A DNA stretch of 35,277 nt from a virus. The notes beneath the pieces are model-generated. The model saw only the letters and a list, made by a program, of their open reading frames with translations, was not told the DNA's origin and did no database searches. Shown here piece by piece: positions 6,431 to 35,277 of this stretch. The stretch is from IMG/VR virus record IMGVR_UViG_3300037584_003289, positions 1-35,277 of that record, one strand, 5' to 3'. Position numbers and translations under genes: made by a program. Every line of letters begins with the position of its first letter. Position 1 is the first letter of the stretch.

Positions 6431-6849
6431 GTACCATTGTCACTAGAGCTGGCAAAGGCTCACCATTAACTCATACAGAAGTTGATGCTAATTTCACAAA
6501 TTTAAACACTGACAAAGCTGGTTATATTACTGGTGACGGTGGAACAGTAACTCAAGCTAGTTCAAAATCGACTACGGTTACACTTAACAAAAAATGTGGA
6601 ACAGTCACAATGAATGGAGCTGCTTTAGCGGCTGATGCCATTGTTTCTTTTACTCTTACAAATTCAACAATTGCGGCAACTGACGTTGTTGTTTTAAACC
6701 ATGCTTCTGGTGGTACAGCAGGAAAGTATGCTTTAAACGCACAAGCAGCAGCAGGTTCAGCTTCAATTAATGTGACTAACATTTCAGCAGGATCATTGAG
6801 TGAAGCAATTGTTATTCGTTTCGCTGTTATTAAAGCTGTAACTGCATAA
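6427..6849 (+). CDS. Tail-associated beta-rich protein (fibre or decoration type)
   Basis: A 140-residue protein inserted between the M- and L-like genes. The N-terminus (RAGKGSPLTHTEVDANFTNLN) is the short attachment motif common at the start of phage tail-fibre proteins. The rest is a beta-rich Ser/Thr/Ala domain containing LNKKCGTVTMN, LTNSTIAATDVVV and SEAIVIRFAVIKA. I infer a tail-tip decoration or side-fibre protein. The specific binding target cannot be read from the sequence. Confidence 0.55.
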   Translation: MSTIVTRAGKGSPLTHTEVDANFTNLNTDKAGYITGDGGTVTQASSKSTTVTLNKKCGTVTMNGAALAADAIVSFTLTNSTIAATDVVVLNHASGGTAGKYALNAQAAAGSASINVTNISAGSLSEAIVIRFAVIKAVTA

Positions 6850-27063: not shown

Positions 27064-29052
27064 TTAGTGCACCTCACTCCATTTTTTACCAACAGATGTT
27101 TCTGCCAATGGAGGTATGTCTCCTTCGTTTGGTGTTAAGTAATCAAGCCATATTCCTTCTGCCTGTTCCATAATGCTGCTGAGTTTCTCAGACCATTTAT
27201 CTTCAAATCCCTCCTTAACTAATAGGAGTAATTCATCATGCACAGCAGCCGCAATCTTGACTTCCTTTTCTCCTGCCTTATAAACCTCTTTCCATAGTTC
27301 ACCTAATGCCATCTTCAATATGGCTGCCCCTGCACCTTGTATAGGTGTGTTGCATCTAACAGTAACTTTATTCAAATCCCCTGGTAATAAACGCTTCATT
27401 TTAGATAAAGGTATGCGAATAAAAGGAATAGCATCCGTTCCACCAGCATCAGTGGCTTTGTTAAGAGTCCTCTGAGTTTTAGCAGCTTCAGCAGCATTGT
27501 CCTCCTGCCACTTCCTTATTCCCTGGTACGTTTGCAACCAATCCTCTCTGATCCTTATTGCTTCAGGCATAGTCATTGTTACTCCACTTGCACCTGCGTA
27601 ATTTCTCAGACCTTCTGCACCCGCCCCATACAACAAACCAAAGTTTGCTGATTTTGCGATCTGCCTATCACAGCCCATTGCACTAGCGGTGAACTCATGT
27701 AAGTCTCCGCCCTCTTTGAACACAGAAGCCATATTTTTATCCTGGGCCAAAGCAGCAGCTAAACGAAGTTCCATCTGTCCGTAATCAGCATCTACTAAGG
27801 ACCAACCATCAGGGGCTTGAACACATTGCCTAAAAGAAGCATCTCTAGGAATCTGCTGATTATTGGGTTTAATACAACTCATCCGACCTGTATCTGCTCC
27901 GAGCTGCATATATGAAGCTCGAACAAAACCATCACTAGCCATTTTCTCCTTAATGGAAGTGACCATCTGCCTTCTCTTTTCTGTCTTCTTCCACAGTAAA
28001 TATTTATGCACTACCTCATGGTCTGCTGTATAAGATCTCAAAGCTTGTCTTGACGCACTAGGTTTACCCTTTGCATCTCTAGGCTCTTCACCTAAAACAG
28101 CAGTGAATTTTTCCAGCAGTTGTTTAGGGCTATTAAGGTTAAATCCCCTGTACTTTTTAGTACCAAGACGTATCGAACCTTCGTCTTTCGCACGTAAATT
28201 AAACGCTTCCATCTCTAACTCCTCTATTTCCTCATACCAACGTGCTCTAGTTTCTGGATCGTGCCCTGGTTCGCACAACTTATCTTTTATCTGATTGATC
28301 TTTACATGAGCATCACCTTCTCTAGGAAGTTTCAGCTCATCAGGCAAAGCCTTATTTAGATCTTCCAAAAACTCTTTACCCATATTCTCTGCATCAAATT
28401 CGTAGTCCTTACGGCACTGCTCTAGTGCTTCAGCGTTCCAGGGTAAACCTGTTCTCCACATTTGAGCCAAAGCTGGTATAGCTCTAGATTCTAGGATCTC
28501 AGCTTTTCTCAACTGCCCATACTGAAGCTTCCTTTCCATGACCTCATATAGATCAGGTAAAACCTCCACATCTTTGGCAGCGTAGGCTTTCTGCTCCTCA
28601 CTTAAATAAGGTGCGCTCCAATCAGAAGTTTGCTGCTCTTTAGATAGTTCTATATCTAAATGCTTTTTGCAAACAGCAGCTAAACCATGCTTTAACCCTG
28701 GTATGCCATTGGTAAGTAAACGATTAGCCAGCATCGTGCATTTAATACCTGTATCCAGAGTGTTGGGATGTATCCCATATTCCTGAAGCCAAGCAATATC
28801 AAATACAGCATTGTGGGCTATCCACATTCGAGGTGTATTGAAGAACCTCCTTACCTGTTCAAAGTCATCCTGCGTTAGCTCAAAGCAGTCGAGGACAACC
28901 ACACTAGCTCTGCTCTTACAAGCAAGCTGGATTAAACGCAGCTTCCCCTGTTCAGGCTGTAGCTGGAGCGTTTCTGTATCAAACGCTATGGATACGGATG
29001 TTTGAAGCACATTTAGATGCTCAATACCGTAGTACACTTTGTAGTTAATCAT
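27064..29052 (-). CDS. polA: DNA polymerase I (family A) with 3'-5' exonuclease
   Basis: A 662-residue replicative polymerase with no 5'-3' exonuclease domain. The exonuclease has DTE (Asp25, Glu27), HNAVFD (Asp85) and YAAKD (Tyr157, Asp161), the DEDDy set. The polymerase motifs are A, DADYGQMELR (421-430); B, RQIAKSANFGLLYG with Phe471 at the position of E. coli Phe762; and C, VHDE (604-607). Motif A has Gly where most have Ser (DYSQIE). All catalytic residues are present. It overlaps the upstream 79-residue gene by eight bases. Confidence 0.93.
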   Translation of the reverse strand: MINYKVYYGIEHLNVLQTSVSIAFDTETLQLQPEQGKLRLIQLACKSRASVVVLDCFELTQDDFEQVRRFFNTPRMWIAHNAVFDIAWLQEYGIHPNTLDTGIKCTMLANRLLTNGIPGLKHGLAAVCKKHLDIELSKEQQTSDWSAPYLSEEQKAYAAKDVEVLPDLYEVMERKLQYGQLRKAEILESRAIPALAQMWRTGLPWNAEALEQCRKDYEFDAENMGKEFLEDLNKALPDELKLPREGDAHVKINQIKDKLCEPGHDPETRARWYEEIEELEMEAFNLRAKDEGSIRLGTKKYRGFNLNSPKQLLEKFTAVLGEEPRDAKGKPSASRQALRSYTADHEVVHKYLLWKKTEKRRQMVTSIKEKMASDGFVRASYMQLGADTGRMSCIKPNNQQIPRDASFRQCVQAPDGWSLVDADYGQMELRLAAALAQDKNMASVFKEGGDLHEFTASAMGCDRQIAKSANFGLLYGAGAEGLRNYAGASGVTMTMPEAIRIREDWLQTYQGIRKWQEDNAAEAAKTQRTLNKATDAGGTDAIPFIRIPLSKMKRLLPGDLNKVTVRCNTPIQGAGAAILKMALGELWKEVYKAGEKEVKIAAAVHDELLLLVKEGFEDKWSEKLSSIMEQAEGIWLDYLTPNEGDIPPLAETSVGKKWSEVH

Positions 29053-30508: not shown

Positions 30509-32995
30509 TTAATCAGCTTCTAGGAAGTCTTTTGCAAAATCCCTATGTCTGTGTTTGGGAGCGTCAAAACTATCTTCCGTTCCAGGGGAAGCGTTCTTAT
30601 TGACAAACGGTGTTTTGTCAGAACTACTTTTGTCAAAAGTATTTGCTTCTGAAGAATCCGCACCAGGACTTTTGACAAAACTACCTTTTGACAATTCCTC
30701 TTTGTCAATAAGATCCGTTCCAGTAGAAGGGGTTTGAGTTAATACACACTTATTATCGGGCGTTAAGGAAACTGGCTCTTTTCGGAAGGTTTTTAGGATC
30801 GTACCAAGAGCAATATAGAAAGCTGGAGGACGACCCTTAAAAGATGCACTTTCTGGTGGATCGCATTTAGCAATCAACTTCTGCGCAAGCAACTTAGAAA
30901 GGCTATATCGAATGGCACGTTTCTTATGTAAACCACCCACCTGATCATGTTCAGTTAATAAATCAGCAGACCAAGGAACCTTTTCCTCTCTCATCAATTT
31001 GAGTATGTCCAACATGTGCTGATTAGGTGTGCTGTCTTTAACCGTATTCTTTCCATCTGGAACGGGACCAATGGTGTACGTGTAATCAGGGAGCAAACTA
31101 AACAACATTTTCTGTCCCTCCCTGTCATCCCTAGATTTCTCTACGGTCACAATCCTGCTATTGAAAGGAGCTGCCATCTCAGCTAATTCCTTGTTACTCA
31201 CTTTCTGCATATTCCACGTTTCATCTACAGCAGCCTTAATAGCAGATGTTCCCCTAAAACCACCGTTCCTATTGTTGTGATGGATCACAATAATTGAACA
31301 AGCACCAAAATCCTGACCATTCCTTCTAGCCAACCTCTTTAGAGGAAGTGCATACTCTCTTCTATTTTCTTCGTAGGGGTTTGAATCGTTACAGCCATCA
31401 AGACTGTCTATAACAACCAAGTCATATCTACCTTTTTTACCTGTACCACCTCCTTGGATCTTGCAGAATTTCCTATACCAAGCCATATCCCATTCACCAA
31501 TAACATCAACACCCCTATCAACACCAATCAAATTGAACTGCCTTCTTGTAATCCTTTCGCTTTGATCTCCATTCAACCAAAGACATTTTCCTCTTTCTAT
31601 ATCAACTAAACCCCCATGAACATTAAAGTTTCTTCCTTGGCTGATGTGCTTACAAAGTGTTTGGCACATAGCAGATTTACCAGTACCACCGTCTGCATGA
31701 ATCAAGAGCAGCCAGGGTTTAGGTAACAAGCCAGGAATTAAATACTCAAAAGCAGTGTCATCTAAATCCCCAACATCTTTAGGCTTACCACCTGCGTTCC
31801 TCTTATAGGAAAGGTGAGCATCAATCAACCTATCAATCGCAACCGCCCCTTCCCTGGCACGTCCAGCTTCCATAGCCAGAACTGTTTTCGCTTGATCTAG
31901 TAGAGCTGGATCTTCTATCTCTTCCTCAAGATCCAAACCTCTAGCAATTAATTCCTCACCATTCAAATATTCAAACTTTACTTTCTGAGGTTGTTTCTCG
32001 ATCTCATCCACCAACGATGCAATATCGTCCCTTTGAAATCGTGACCTCGTTGGGTCAATCTCATCCGCTTCAGCAATAAGACTTCCAAACCCTCTTATGT
32101 TTCCAGTGTGCTTCCAGTTCCTATTCCATTTCTTTTCGCAGGGATTCCCTTTGGTGCGTAAACCTTCTGCTGACCAATCCCATGAATACTCAGGATCTCT
32201 TTTAGACCATTCCTCCCATACTTTTAAACCTTCTTTACCAGGAAGTTCAGAGTTAATCATTGCTCCGACTTGCCACCAATAATCCTCTGAGTAAGCACCC
32301 TTTGGAGGAATAACACTCAAGCAGTTTTCAGCAATAACAATTTTCTCTTCCTTAGTTCTTGCAGACCACCTTGTATCTTTCAGTCTTTTCTTAGGTCTAT
32401 CCTCATTGTCTTTTCTGTATTGCTCCCTCATCCTTTCAAGTAACCAAGTTGGAGCAACAGGTATATCGCTTATATCTCCCTCAAATTTGTATTCCCCAGG
32501 AGGAGTTTTAGTTGGAGCGTGACCACCATAAGCACCAAATAAAACACCTTGCCTTCCCCACAAGACCTCATAACCCTCTTTATCCGCAGCCGTATGCGAT
32601 ATATCCCTTACATGTAAACGATCCTCTTCAGGGACAATGAAGAGATATTTAGCAGCGTTTTTCTTGTTAGATGTAACTTTAGGTCCAGTTAAATCTTTAC
32701 CCCACTTCTTTTGAATCGCTCCGAGGTTGTAATCAACATCAAATATGCACAATCCTGCACTCTTAACACCAGTAAAGACACCAAATGCCTGGAACGTATC
32801 TGGATTTTGTTCAATACATAGAGCTGATCTAGAAGGAGACCACTTTGCACCTGCTTTACTAGCCTCGAAGTGAGGAACCTTCCCTGTAGCTGCATCACCA
32901 TTAGGGAGTGTGGTTCCCTCTTTATATATCGGGCACGTAGACCATTCAGACGGACAATTTTCAATGAAACTTAACAGTGCTTTTAGCTTGCTCAT
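30509..32995 (-). CDS. Primase-helicase (prim-pol plus RecA-like helicase)
   Basis: 828 residues using ATG 32995 with AAGGGA upstream (a TTG three codons earlier is also possible). The prim-pol domain comprises FGVFTGVKSAGLCIFDVD with Asp86 and Asp88, then AKYLFIVPE, EVLWGRQGVLFG and GEYKF. A PriCT-2-like linker lies at about 235-310 (DYWWQVGAMIN, WEEWSKRDPEY). The RecA-fold helicase follows: Walker A HADGGTGKS (433-441), Walker B LVVIDSLD (Asp530), and sensor IIVIHHNN. A winged-helix-like region follows, then a Ser/Asp-rich tail holding repeated F(V/D)K boxes. It should prime and unwind DNA for polA. Confidence 0.88.
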   Translation of the reverse strand: MSKLKALLSFIENCPSEWSTCPIYKEGTTLPNGDAATGKVPHFEASKAGAKWSPSRSALCIEQNPDTFQAFGVFTGVKSAGLCIFDVDYNLGAIQKKWGKDLTGPKVTSNKKNAAKYLFIVPEEDRLHVRDISHTAADKEGYEVLWGRQGVLFGAYGGHAPTKTPPGEYKFEGDISDIPVAPTWLLERMREQYRKDNEDRPKKRLKDTRWSARTKEEKIVIAENCLSVIPPKGAYSEDYWWQVGAMINSELPGKEGLKVWEEWSKRDPEYSWDWSAEGLRTKGNPCEKKWNRNWKHTGNIRGFGSLIAEADEIDPTRSRFQRDDIASLVDEIEKQPQKVKFEYLNGEELIARGLDLEEEIEDPALLDQAKTVLAMEAGRAREGAVAIDRLIDAHLSYKRNAGGKPKDVGDLDDTAFEYLIPGLLPKPWLLLIHADGGTGKSAMCQTLCKHISQGRNFNVHGGLVDIERGKCLWLNGDQSERITRRQFNLIGVDRGVDVIGEWDMAWYRKFCKIQGGGTGKKGRYDLVVIDSLDGCNDSNPYEENRREYALPLKRLARRNGQDFGACSIIVIHHNNRNGGFRGTSAIKAAVDETWNMQKVSNKELAEMAAPFNSRIVTVEKSRDDREGQKMLFSLLPDYTYTIGPVPDGKNTVKDSTPNQHMLDILKLMREEKVPWSADLLTEHDQVGGLHKKRAIRYSLSKLLAQKLIAKCDPPESASFKGRPPAFYIALGTILKTFRKEPVSLTPDNKCVLTQTPSTGTDLIDKEELSKGSFVKSPGADSSEANTFDKSSSDKTPFVNKNASPGTEDSFDAPKHRHRDFAKDFLEAD
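30600..30710. repeat. Cluster of six TTGACAAA/TTTGTCAA boxes
   Basis: Boxes lie at about 30600, 30613, 30628, 30670, 30685 and 30700, in both orientations; the one at 30628 is near-palindromic (TTTTGTCAAAAG). They sit in the 3' end of the primase-helicase gene. Five share one codon phase and encode F-D-K/F-V-K/S-D-K-type tripeptides, and one is in a different phase. They could be an origin or a binding-site cluster, or a simple protein repeat. Confidence 0.5.
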
Positions 32996-33028
32996 GTGAT
33001 ACAATTCCCTTGTAGAAACTTAATTTTT

Positions 33029-33063
33029 AACCCCTTCGGCCTCTCCAGCCCTAGGGGTTTTTT
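33029..33063 (+). terminator. Plus-strand terminator/attenuator between divergent genes
   Basis: AACCCCT and AGGGGTT form a 7-bp stem around a 17-base loop with an inner GGC/GCC pair, followed by six T. No plus-strand gene lies upstream for several kb, so it most likely acts on a leader transcript of the single-strand-binding gene or blocks stray transcription. Confidence 0.7.
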
Positions 33064-33109
33064 CATTATACCTTATAGACAAGGCTCTGTCATTATGCTA
33101 CATTTACAG

Positions 33110-33139
33110 AGCACTCAGGGCATAGCCCACTTAGCACTC
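33110..33139 (+). promoter_or_regulatory. Direct repeat flanking a hairpin in the SSB leader
   Basis: AGCACTC occurs at 33110-33116 and 33133-33139, with a GGGC/GCCC hairpin between. The second copy is 3 bases before the chosen ATG, where a Shine-Dalgarno sequence would lie. It could be a site of translational control, for example self-regulation by the product. If the upstream ATG at 33095 is used instead, this segment is coding. Confidence 0.3.
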
Positions 33140-33142
33140 TTT

Positions 33143-33748
33143 ATGTCATTTTTATCCGACAGAGCCAGAGAGGAAGGCAGTAAGTCTTCTAACTCTACAG
33201 ACAATTATCTGAATCCATCCAAATTGGAGGATGGTGACTCAGTACGTTTCTGTTTATTACAAGAAAATCCCATTGATTTCTTCGAGGTTTGGGGATCTCT
33301 AACTGAAGACCCCACAAAATCTCGCCCATACAGATTTGAAGGAGATCCAACTCCAGAAGATATATCTGAAGCAATGGGCACTGAAGCTACCAGAAGATTG
33401 AACTTTGATGGTACTGCTCCAGATCCTGCAAAGTTAGCTATTGCAATTGCGATATATAACTACGATGCTGGAAGAGTTCAAGTCCTCCAGTTCAGTCAAA
33501 AGACTCTGATTACACAGTTAGATCAGATTGCTCAGATGGAAGATTATAGAGATGATCTTCTTGCTTTTGACTTCTCTCTTAGTAGGACAGGCGTTAAAAA
33601 AGACACCAAATACTCTCTTATCTGTGTTCCTCAAAGAAAGAACGCTAAAAAAGAAAAGGAAGAGGCATGGGAGCAGGTTAAAGCGGATGGCTTCGATATA
33701 TACCGTCTTATTGATGGAACGGACCCATTCAAACCACCAACTGCTTAG
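33143..33748 (+). CDS. Putative single-strand DNA-binding protein
   Basis: 201 residues from ATG 33143 (MSFLSDRAREEGSKSSNSTD); ATG 33095 would add 16 residues. Features are KLEDGDSVRFCLL with EFFEVWG-like DFFEVWG, TPEDISEAMG, AIAIYNYDAGRVQVLQFSQK, and EDYRDDLLAFDFSLSRTG. These are arranged like the phage OB-fold proteins placed beside replication and nuclease genes. The C-terminus is charged. It diverges from the primase-helicase and precedes the nuclease, supporting a DNA-metabolism role. The function is inferred. Confidence 0.55.
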   Translation: MSFLSDRAREEGSKSSNSTDNYLNPSKLEDGDSVRFCLLQENPIDFFEVWGSLTEDPTKSRPYRFEGDPTPEDISEAMGTEATRRLNFDGTAPDPAKLAIAIAIYNYDAGRVQVLQFSQKTLITQLDQIAQMEDYRDDLLAFDFSLSRTGVKKDTKYSLICVPQRKNAKKEKEEAWEQVKADGFDIYRLIDGTDPFKPPTA

Positions 33749-33754
33749 TCACTT

Positions 33755-33783
33755 AGGGGCCATTCATCGGCCCCTTTCTTTTT
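33755..33783 (+). terminator. Rho-independent terminator after the SSB-like gene
   Basis: AGGGGCC and GGCCCCT form a 7-bp stem around the 7-base loop ATTCATC, followed by TTCTTTTT. It starts 7 bases after the stop codon. The loop region reads CCATTCAT, the same octamer repeated in the nuclease gene downstream. Confidence 0.88.
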
Positions 33784-33806
33784 AGCTATTTTATGGTAAA
33801 CTAATT

Positions 33807-34682
33807 ATGGGAACGTGTATCTTAATGCCTACTAATGTCACCTTGGACACTCAAAACGCATTGGCAGGACTAAGGAAATGGCAACTGGAGCGTGATGACT
33901 CCAACACAATATATCCGCACCGTGTATATAGAGATAAAGAAGGCAAGATATATAGCTCAGTTACTCATATCCTTAATCAAACAGCTCCCAAAGAACAAAA
34001 AGATGCCCTGGAACGTTGGCTATCACGCCCTAACAGCCCTGCTGAACGTGATCTTGCCGCCCAAAGAGGAACGTACGCACATGGTCACGCCGAATATATC
34101 CTTAAAACCACGGCAAAGTTGGCAAGACAAACAGCGAATAAGCGAGGAGTTTGGACCACTGGAGGCGATTGCCTGGAACGTGCCCCTTCAAAAATCACGG
34201 CATGGGCAATGCAAAAAGCAATTAAAAATGCCCCTAAAGTCAACTTTTCCGCTAGTGGGTACGCCAGAGGTCTACGGACTTTTATAGAAGCAAACGTTAC
34301 TGCCATTCATGCCGTAGAATTTTCCATTCATTACACACCAAACGCCATTCATAACGGTAAAAATCCCATTCATGGATTTGCTGGAACGTGCGATTGCATG
34401 GTGGACATCCAGGGTGAGGGGCCATTCATAGTTGATTGGAAAACTAGCCAGAATAAAAGAACAGAAGAAATGTATGAAAGCTATAAAGATCAACTTGGAG
34501 CGTATTCACTAGGATTAACCCGCCTCACTGACATTCAACCCAAAGGAGCTGTAGTTGTCTGTGCTAGAAGATCGGGTGAACCTGACGTTAAATTTTTGAA
34601 TGATATACAGCTAAAACAACATCAACAGAATTATCTGGAACGTTTCAGTCAATATTTGTCGAACTTGAGTTTGCCAGAATAA
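33807..34682 (+). CDS. RecB/Cas4-like PD-(D/E)XK exonuclease
   Basis: 291 residues from ATG 33807; ATG 33825 (MPTNVTLD) is an alternative start. The N-terminal half has SSVTHILNQTAP and AAQRGTYAHGHAEYIL, with a His often involved in the active site. The core is GFAGTCDCMVDIQGEG, then FIVDWKTS, and a YKDQLGAYSLGL helix, giving the Asp, Asp-x-Lys and Gln/Tyr set of RecB-type nucleases. It probably processes DNA ends for recombination or packaging. The gene is unusually rich in the TGGARCGT motif and contains the 21-bp CCATTCAT array. Confidence 0.82.
   Translation: MGTCILMPTNVTLDTQNALAGLRKWQLERDDSNTIYPHRVYRDKEGKIYSSVTHILNQTAPKEQKDALERWLSRPNSPAERDLAAQRGTYAHGHAEYILKTTAKLARQTANKRGVWTTGGDCLERAPSKITAWAMQKAIKNAPKVNFSASGYARGLRTFIEANVTAIHAVEFSIHYTPNAIHNGKNPIHGFAGTCDCMVDIQGEGPFIVDWKTSQNKRTEEMYESYKDQLGAYSLGLTRLTDIQPKGAVVVCARRSGEPDVKFLNDIQLKQHQQNYLERFSQYLSNLSLPE
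34303..34429 (+). repeat. CCATTCAT array with 21-bp spacing
   Basis: The octamer starts at 34303, 34324, 34345 and 34366, exactly 21 bp apart, and again at 34422. The first four encode a 7-residue periodic x-I-H pattern (AIH, SIH, AIH, PIH). The fifth is in another codon phase (GPFI). A sixth copy lies at 33760 in the terminator loop. The spacing of two DNA turns is typical of iterons. Confidence 0.6.
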
Positions 34683-34753
34683 AAAATGACCAAAAAGTTC
34701 ACCAAAGTCGAGCAAATTTCAACTCTAAAAAAGTAAAAAATGTTGCGGATAAA

Positions 34754-34789
34754 GTGTAAAAATGTAGTATATATGTACTACATTTACAC
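34754..34789. repeat. Inverted repeat between convergent genes
   Basis: The inner arms AAATGTAGTA and TACTACATTT are 10 bp around TATATG. The outer GTGT/ACAC pairs after a two-base bulge. It sits between the nuclease stop (34682) and the minus-strand stop at 34789. It may be a two-way terminator, though the T-tracts are poor, or a protein site. Confidence 0.5.
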
Positions 34790-35115
34790 TATGTAATATA
34801 TGGTCTCTCTATACAAATAGTGTCGAATTTGTAAAAAATATCATTCATAGCTTGTTTTTCTGTTTTAAAAGGGCCATTAACTTTTCTAATACTTGCCTGG
34901 TAATCGTTTACAAATCTTCTATAACCATTATTTGAGTAGTGTCTGTAAGTGGGAAAATATGCATTCATTCTGCCTTGAATCTCTTCAAACTCCCATTTTG
35001 GCACGTGTAACTCCCAGTAATACCCAGGATTAAAAGGGATATATTCGTTTTCATCTAATAAAAGATTGGCTCCTTTTTTCCATGAATCGGAGTAATAGAT
35101 TTCTACTTTTCTCAT
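34789..35115 (-). CDS. Hypothetical aromatic-rich protein
   Basis: A 108-residue protein (MRKVEIYYSDSWKKGANLLL, YIPFNPGYYWELHVPKWEFE, AYFPTYRHYSNNGYRRFVND) with an unusually high Tyr/Phe/Trp content and a C-terminal FYKFDTICIERPYIT. The start overlaps the upstream stop as ATGA. No domain was recognised. Confidence 0.55.
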   Translation of the reverse strand: MRKVEIYYSDSWKKGANLLLDENEYIPFNPGYYWELHVPKWEFEEIQGRMNAYFPTYRHYSNNGYRRFVNDYQASIRKVNGPFKTEKQAMNDIFYKFDTICIERPYIT

Positions 35116-35261
35116 TTGTGTAAAGAATTTCTTTGGGCTGGAGTGAGGGCAGAGTCATAATAATCCTGCGATTCAAGATCTAATCTCATTTGCTCCAGCT
35201 CTTCTGGCGTTGGCTCGTATGCTTCAAGACCTTCCAAAAATTTTTGTTCTGTGGGGTCCAT
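35112..35261 (-). CDS. 49-residue acidic protein
   Basis: MDPTEQKFLEGLEAYEPTPE, then a helical ELEQMRLDLESQ stretch and ALTPAQRNSLHK. TTGGAGG precedes the ATG as a strong Shine-Dalgarno sequence, and the stop overlaps the next start by four bases. It is probably the first gene of a small minus-strand operon at the window edge. Function unknown. Confidence 0.6.
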   Translation of the reverse strand: MDPTEQKFLEGLEAYEPTPEELEQMRLDLESQDYYDSALTPAQRNSLHK

Positions 35262-35277
35262 TAATCTGCCTCCAAGT

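What the first reader, a model, noticed from the sequence alone, without database searches (positions are those of the whole stretch)
34303..34429. Iteron-like CCATTCAT array inside the nuclease gene
Four copies are spaced at exactly 21 bp, two helical turns, so they face the same side of the DNA. A fifth copy 56 bp on is in another codon phase, and a sixth forms the loop region of the terminator at 33755-33783. I noticed only one complementary copy elsewhere (near 6608). The first four also encode a periodic x-I-H heptad, so protein-level repetition could contribute. The array could be a replication origin, a packaging site or an operator read by a phage protein.
Basis: partly seen in the sequence, partly recalled or inferred. 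Interest (0 to 1): 0.62.

Follow-up and report, generated by a model that had tools for sequence, protein, structure and literature searches.

The report
Polar phage DNA-signal cluster in nuclease gene
A whole family of uncultured marine phages piles up two short DNA words, always on the same strand, in and around one nuclease gene just before the packaging genes; this is a DNA-level signal, not a protein repeat, and it resembles the Chi signals that stop bacterial nucleases from destroying DNA, although the protein that reads it is unknown.

Summary
In detail: five CCATTCAT in the nuclease gene (four exactly 21 bp apart), a sixth in a terminator loop, one on the other strand. Synonymous-codon shuffles never reach five (0 of 20,000). 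Relatives keep the DNA word by codon choice, in all three frames and between genes. In 35 non-redundant nuclease loci, CCATTCAT occurs 86 times on the gene's strand and never on the other. A second word, CTGGARCG, behaves the same way (98:1 and 93:2 for its two forms) and is strand-polar genome-wide. Both peak in the nuclease gene, between replication genes and terminase. The 21-bp phasing is not conserved: outside the gene spacings run 18-26 bp without helical periodicity. The array is lost in close relatives, while replication and terminase alleles vary without it changing. I favour a polar, Chi-like signal read by a translocating nuclease-helicase, probably the host's (0.40), over an iteron origin (0.30) or packaging site (0.12). 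The host-genome test could not be run.

The parts
34303..34310 (+). motif A copy 1 (CCATTCAT; A-I-H codons)
34324..34331 (+). motif A copy 2 (S-I-H codons)
34345..34352 (+). motif A copy 3 (absent with its 7-aa segment in the 80%-identical group)
34366..34373 (+). motif A copy 4 (P-I-H)
34422..34429 (+). motif A copy 5, other codon phase
33760..33767 (+). motif A copy 6, loop of the terminator
33755..33783 (+). intrinsic-terminator-like hairpin between ssb and nuclease
   Evidence: -17 kcal/mol, z -3.6
34842..34848 (+). degenerate copy CATTCAT downstream of the gene
34962..34968 (+). degenerate copy CATTCAT
34008..34016 (+). motif B CTGGAACGT
34173..34181 (+). motif B CTGGAACGT
34381..34389 (+). 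motif B CTGGAACGT in another codon phase (A-G-T)
34635..34643 (+). motif B CTGGAACGT
33810..33816 (+). motif B core GGAACGT at the gene start
34068..34074 (+). motif B core GGAACGT
33807..34682 (+). PD-(D/E)XK exonuclease gene holding the cluster
   Evidence: PF12705 1.7e-8; phrog_298 3.7e-26
33095..33748 (+). single-strand DNA-binding protein gene, upstream neighbour
   Evidence: phrog_14578 1.2e-5
30509..33004 (-). primase/helicase-like gene (PriCT_2 + AAA_25), divergent from ssb
27064..29052 (-). DNA polymerase A gene
   Evidence: PF00476 4.8e-60
34683..34788 (.). A+T-rich convergent intergenic stretch; relatives carry motif A pairs or arrays in this interval

Best explanation
Shown: CCATTCAT (motif A, consensus GCCATTCATR) and CTGGARCG (motif B) are strand-polar DNA signals that this phage family accumulates in and around the exonuclease gene, between the replication genes and the terminase, and that protein coding has been bent to accommodate. 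Inferred: they act like Chi. A helicase-nuclease that enters at a free DNA end, such as the unpackaged end left when terminase cuts upstream of its own genes, runs leftward and meets the words from their 3' side. It is then switched from degradation to recombination, or stalled, which protects the replication end of the genome and feeds concatemer formation.
For: Polarity: CCATTCAT 86:0, CTGGAACG 98:1, CTGGAGCG 93:2 in 35 non-redundant loci. Copies lie in all frames and in noncoding DNA. The + bias persists inside minus-strand genes: CTGGAGCG 52:15, CCATTCA 22:1, so it is not tied to gene sense. Selected over synonymous codons: A 41 vs 4.2, B 88 vs 17, 0 of 1000 shuffles. Density falls away on both sides of the nuclease gene: A from 4/kb to about 0.05/kb, B from 5/kb to 0.3-0.6/kb. 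The location matches Chi in lambdoid phages, concentrated between replication genes and terminase (PMC3784561). RecBCD Chi octamers share GCTGG with variable last bases (GCTGGTGG, GCTGGCGC, PMC5959072); B shares CTGG. Marine Prochlorococcus and Synechococcus carry recBCD (PMC5101192); the capsid's best relatives are a seawater single-cell virus and cyanophages. A is lost between near-identical relatives while B stays. Primase and ssb alleles change without A changing, and G031 keeps TerS 72% and TerL 91% but has no A, pointing away from those phage readers.
Against: No host genome could be examined, so over-representation in the host is untested. Motif A does not resemble any known Chi, and arrays with 18-26 bp spacing are far denser than known Chi (about 0.2/kb in lambdoids). 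Other cyanophages show no such B enrichment (S-H1 4:5, KBS-S-2A 7:3). The phage encodes its own exonuclease. Motif A polarity is regional, not genome-wide. The physical genome end and packaging direction are inferred from gene order, not mapped. The host assignment rests on relatives only.
Confidence: 0.4

Rival explanations
1. Iteron replication origin: the direct repeats bind an initiator that opens the adjacent A+T-rich stretch, as lambda O does at repeats inside gene O.
For: Direct repeats at about 20 bp, beside replication genes, partly inside a gene, with A+T-rich intergenic DNA next to arrays in several genomes (window +915, G011 +898, G017 +1041, G018 +1314, G026 +884 from the nuclease start). 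Arrays of three to six copies downstream of the gene in many relatives.
Against: Single copies with the same polarity are scattered over several kb; spacings are not helically phased. The array is absent from L067/L068, G029, G031 and G034 although these have polymerase, primase, ssb and nuclease. Primase/ssb alleles swap without motif change. GC skew gives no matching turning point in circular genomes.
Confidence: 0.3
2. Packaging (pac/cosB-like) site read by the small terminase, located upstream of the terminase genes.
For: Family genomes with the array have one TerL type (69-97% identical), and the clade without A and B has no match to that TerL. The array lies 2-5 kb upstream of terL.
Against: G031 (TerS 72%, TerL 91%) and G034 (TerL 87%) lack the array. 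Distance to terS is larger than in known pac phages (from memory), and the signal extends into the primase region. The small-terminase assignment itself rests on position; no PHROG hit.
Confidence: 0.12
3. RNA-level or transcriptional element (operator, nascent-RNA signal) of the ssb-nuclease operon.
For: Copies are on the sense strand of the nuclease gene; one sits in a terminator loop.
Against: The same strand is used across minus-strand genes, where the copies are antisense, and in the window the array lies within coding DNA with convergent, not promoter-bearing, DNA after it.
Confidence: 0.06
4. Protein-level repetition: an I-H heptad under protein selection alone.
For: The four copies encode x-I-H every seven residues; I167 and H168 are invariant in the family alignment.
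Against: GCCATTCAT is used in 11 of 13 loci although ATT and CAT shares are 0.31 and 0.35; the clade without the signal keeps IH with mostly ATC CAC. Copies exist in other frames and noncoding DNA; the 3rd and 4th repeats are simply missing in the 80% group.
Confidence: 0.02

Closest known systems
Chi sites in lambdoid phages and their RecBCD hosts (PMC3784561, PMC5959072)
   Same: short non-palindromic words, in or out of genes; concentrated between replication genes and terminase; motif B shares the CTGG core of RecBCD Chi octamers
   Different: density 10-25 times higher at the peak; two different words; motif A unlike any Chi; reader and host over-representation not shown
Iteron origins inside genes (lambda ori in gene O; P1 and P4 origins; from memory)
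   Same: direct repeats about two helical turns apart, partly inside a replication-module gene, near A+T-rich DNA
   Different: no fixed spacing, scattered polar single copies, absent from close relatives, no matching initiator identified
pac/cosB sites of headful and cos phages (from memory)
   Same: repeat elements upstream of the terminase genes, co-occurring with one terminase type
   Different: spread over kilobases, missing in some genomes with nearly the same terminase
PD-(D/E)XK phage exonucleases (PF12705, phrog_298)
   Same: the gene that holds the array is an ordinary member
   Different: its codon choice is shaped by the DNA words

Membership tests
Chi-type recombination signal | over-represented beyond composition and coding constraint | tested here: met
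   in the phages only:
Chi-type recombination signal | asymmetric word with strand polarity | tested here: met
Chi-type recombination signal | location between replication and packaging genes as in lambdoids | tested here: met
Chi-type recombination signal | over-represented in the host genome | not testable with these tools
   host not identified; no cyanobacterial genome could be reached
Chi-type recombination signal | attenuates a RecBCD/AddAB-type enzyme entering from the 3' side | not testable with these tools
   needs biochemistry
Iteron replication origin | direct repeats with regular, helically phased spacing | tested here: not met
   21 bp in the gene, but 18-26 bp elsewhere, Rayleigh p 0.25
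Iteron replication origin | present in relatives with the same replication genes | tested here: not met
   absent in L067/68, G029, G031, G034
Iteron replication origin | adjacent A+T-rich unwinding region | tested here: inconclusive
   present in several genomes but ordinary for intergenic DNA
Iteron replication origin | replication starts there | not testable with these tools
   GC skew uninformative
pac site | follows the terminase allele | tested here: inconclusive
   co-occurs with one TerL type but missing in G031 and G034
pac site | virion DNA ends map there | not testable with these tools
   no reads available
PD-(D/E)XK exonuclease (gene at 33807-34682) | profile match over curated cut-off | tested here: met
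   PF12705 35.2 bits over 22; phrog_298 3.7e-26

The most novel reading that the evidence does not exclude
An abundant uncultured marine phage family carries two coordinated polar DNA words, one of them (GCCATTCATR) a new kind of array-forming signal unrelated to Chi in sequence, that mark the replication-packaging junction for a dedicated, still unknown reader acting in one direction along the DNA.
Probability: 0.3. Interest if true: 0.8.

Novelty: new variant of a known kind. Interest (0 to 1): 0.62.

Why it matters
It is a clear case where a phage gene is forced, codon by codon, to carry a DNA signal. The signal's strict polarity and its place between replication and packaging genes make a direct test possible: what is the Chi sequence of marine picocyanobacteria, the most abundant photosynthetic cells, and do their phages carry it for protection? 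If A turns out to be an origin or packaging signal instead, it still gives a first cis-element map for an uncultured but widespread phage family.

Tried and rejected
Searching papers for CCATTCAT returned only chance primer-like matches. Cumulative GC skew of five circular genomes and of the merged contigs gave no origin. The merged 69-kb model of window plus G001 was dropped once both were seen to carry the same capsid gene: the contigs overlap by 2,772 identical bases but are different phages or recombinants. A fixed A-to-B composite was suspected from single sites, but spacing counts show no single preferred distance. A trade-off between A and B counts was tested: Spearman -0.14, p 0.55. 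A replacement motif in the clade without A and B gave only weak candidates (ACCCCTTA 13:0, CACCCGCT 11:0). The nuclease tree does not say whether that clade lost the signal or never had it (root unknown).

Full report
OBSERVATION. CCATTCAT lies at 34303, 34324, 34345, 34366, 34422 and 33760 on the + strand and once at 6610 on the - strand, against 1.35 expected and no shuffle of 100 reaching seven. The first four are 21 bp apart and read A-I-H, S-I-H, A-I-H, P-I-H in the gene's frame; the fifth is in another phase. The sixth is in the loop of a stable hairpin followed by T's. Permuting synonymous codons within the gene gives 0.40 copies on average and never five in 20,000 trials. The gene is a PD-(D/E)XK exonuclease (PF12705 1.7e-8, phrog_298 3.7e-26), next to ssb and divergent from a primase/helicase and a family A polymerase.

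A SECOND WORD. The same gene holds six GGAACGT, four of them as CTGGAACGT, in two codon phases. In the window GGAACGT is 18:2 by strand.

RELATIVES. 18 close and then 80 wider relatives of the nuclease were fetched from viral contigs. Against a 70%-identical relative, wobble codons inside motif A are identical in 11 of 12 cases, against 65 of 171 elsewhere; against the 80% group 7 of 7 (A) and 14 of 14 (B), against 63% elsewhere. Across 35 non-redundant loci the most enriched 8-mers are exactly these: GCCATTCA 90:0, CCATTCAT 86:0, CTGGAGCG 93:2, CTGGAACG 98:1. Copies fall in all three frames of the nuclease gene, and CCATTCA is 57:0 within 1 kb downstream of it. Where A-I-H is encoded, GCC ATT CAT is used in 11 of 13 loci although ATT and CAT make up 31% and 35% of their codons; in a clade without the signal it is 0 of 6. 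24 genes together hold 41 CCATTCAT against 4.2 expected and 88 CTGGARCG against 17, never reached in 1000 shuffles. These counts treat loci as independent; the 35 were dereplicated but still share ancestry.

WHERE IT SITS. Relatives share the order polA(-), primase(-), ssb(+), nuclease(+), then putative terS, terL, portal and capsid. Counting over 15 genomes, motif A (CCATTCA) reaches 4/kb (60:0) in the first kilobase from the nuclease start and falls to about 0.05-0.1/kb beyond -4 kb and to no + copies beyond +3 kb; motif B reaches 5/kb (75:0) and stays + biased all around the genome. In the circular genomes the B strand ratio is 53:8, 45:5, 55:11, 23:9 and 22:2. The bias holds inside the minus-strand replication genes (CTGGAGCG 52:15, CCATTCA 22:1), so it is a property of the DNA strand, not of gene sense.

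WHAT IT IS NOT. Helical phasing is not general: outside the gene, neighbouring copies are mostly 18-26 bp apart with no 10.5-bp periodicity. The array is not indispensable: L067 and L082 are 92% identical over 1.3 kb, yet L082 has an intergenic array where L067 has almost none, B sites remaining. G029, G031 and G034 lack A. No phage protein obviously explains this: primase and ssb alleles range widely in identity to the window's (36-100% for primase) among genomes with A, and G031 shares 72% of the putative TerS and 91% of TerL but has no A. A clade with the same replication genes but no match to this terminase has no A and little B.

MECHANISM. Shown: strand-polar, DNA-selected words concentrated between replication and packaging genes. 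Chi is the known signal with these properties. In lambdoid phages Chi sites concentrate between replication genes and the terminase, and are proposed to protect free ends near the packaging site (PMC3784561). RecBCD Chi octamers differ after GCTGG (GCTGGTGG in E. coli, GCTGGCGC in P. syringae, acting when the enzyme enters from the 3' end, PMC5959072), and motif B is (S)CTGGARCG. Marine Prochlorococcus and Synechococcus have recBCD, unlike model cyanobacteria (PMC5101192), and the capsid's best relatives are a seawater single-cell virus (69%) and cyanosiphoviruses (28-35%). The polarity is what protection of the end left behind by rightward packaging would need; packaging direction and end position are inferred from gene order. 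Against this: no host test, motif A is unlike Chi, the density is very high, and other cyanophages lack the B bias.

RIVALS. An iteron origin explains the arrays and the neighbourhood but not the scattered polar copies, the loose spacing or the losses. A pac site explains the co-occurrence with one terminase type but not G031 and G034. A transcription or RNA signal conflicts with antisense copies in minus-strand genes. Protein repetition alone is excluded.

VERDICT. A genuine, family-wide DNA signal cluster; mechanism open, with Chi-like action (0.40) ahead of an origin (0.30).

Noticed in passing
window 1-35277; genomes G012, G016, G017, G018, G020, G028: CTGGARCG is on the + strand genome-wide (for example 53:8, 48:6, 51:11), with no switch point, including minus-strand gene blocks.
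   Followed up: yes
window 32506-35277 and L019 1-2772: Contig G001 (36,785 bp, same family) is identical to the window's last 2,772 bases, then continues to terminase, portal and its own capsid (90% identical to the window's) and different tail genes: a recombinant relative or an assembly junction.
   Followed up: partly
window 34760-34785: Near-perfect 13-bp inverted repeat AAATGTAGTATAT/ATGTACTACATTT in the A+T-rich stretch just after the nuclease gene.
   Followed up: no
genomes G008, G009, G021, G022, G024, G025 (nuclease -1 to +3 kb): The clade without A and B shows weak candidate polar words of its own (ACCCCTTA 13:0, CACCCGCT 11:0).
   Followed up: partly
G003 and G011 against window: Primase and ssb look exchanged as a block (36% and 37-44% identity) while nuclease and polymerase stay at 64-72%.
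   Followed up: partly
L019 5570-6067, L069 7895-8362: Putative small terminase next to terL lies antisense to terL in the window-type phages but in the same sense in others; no PHROG match.
   Followed up: no
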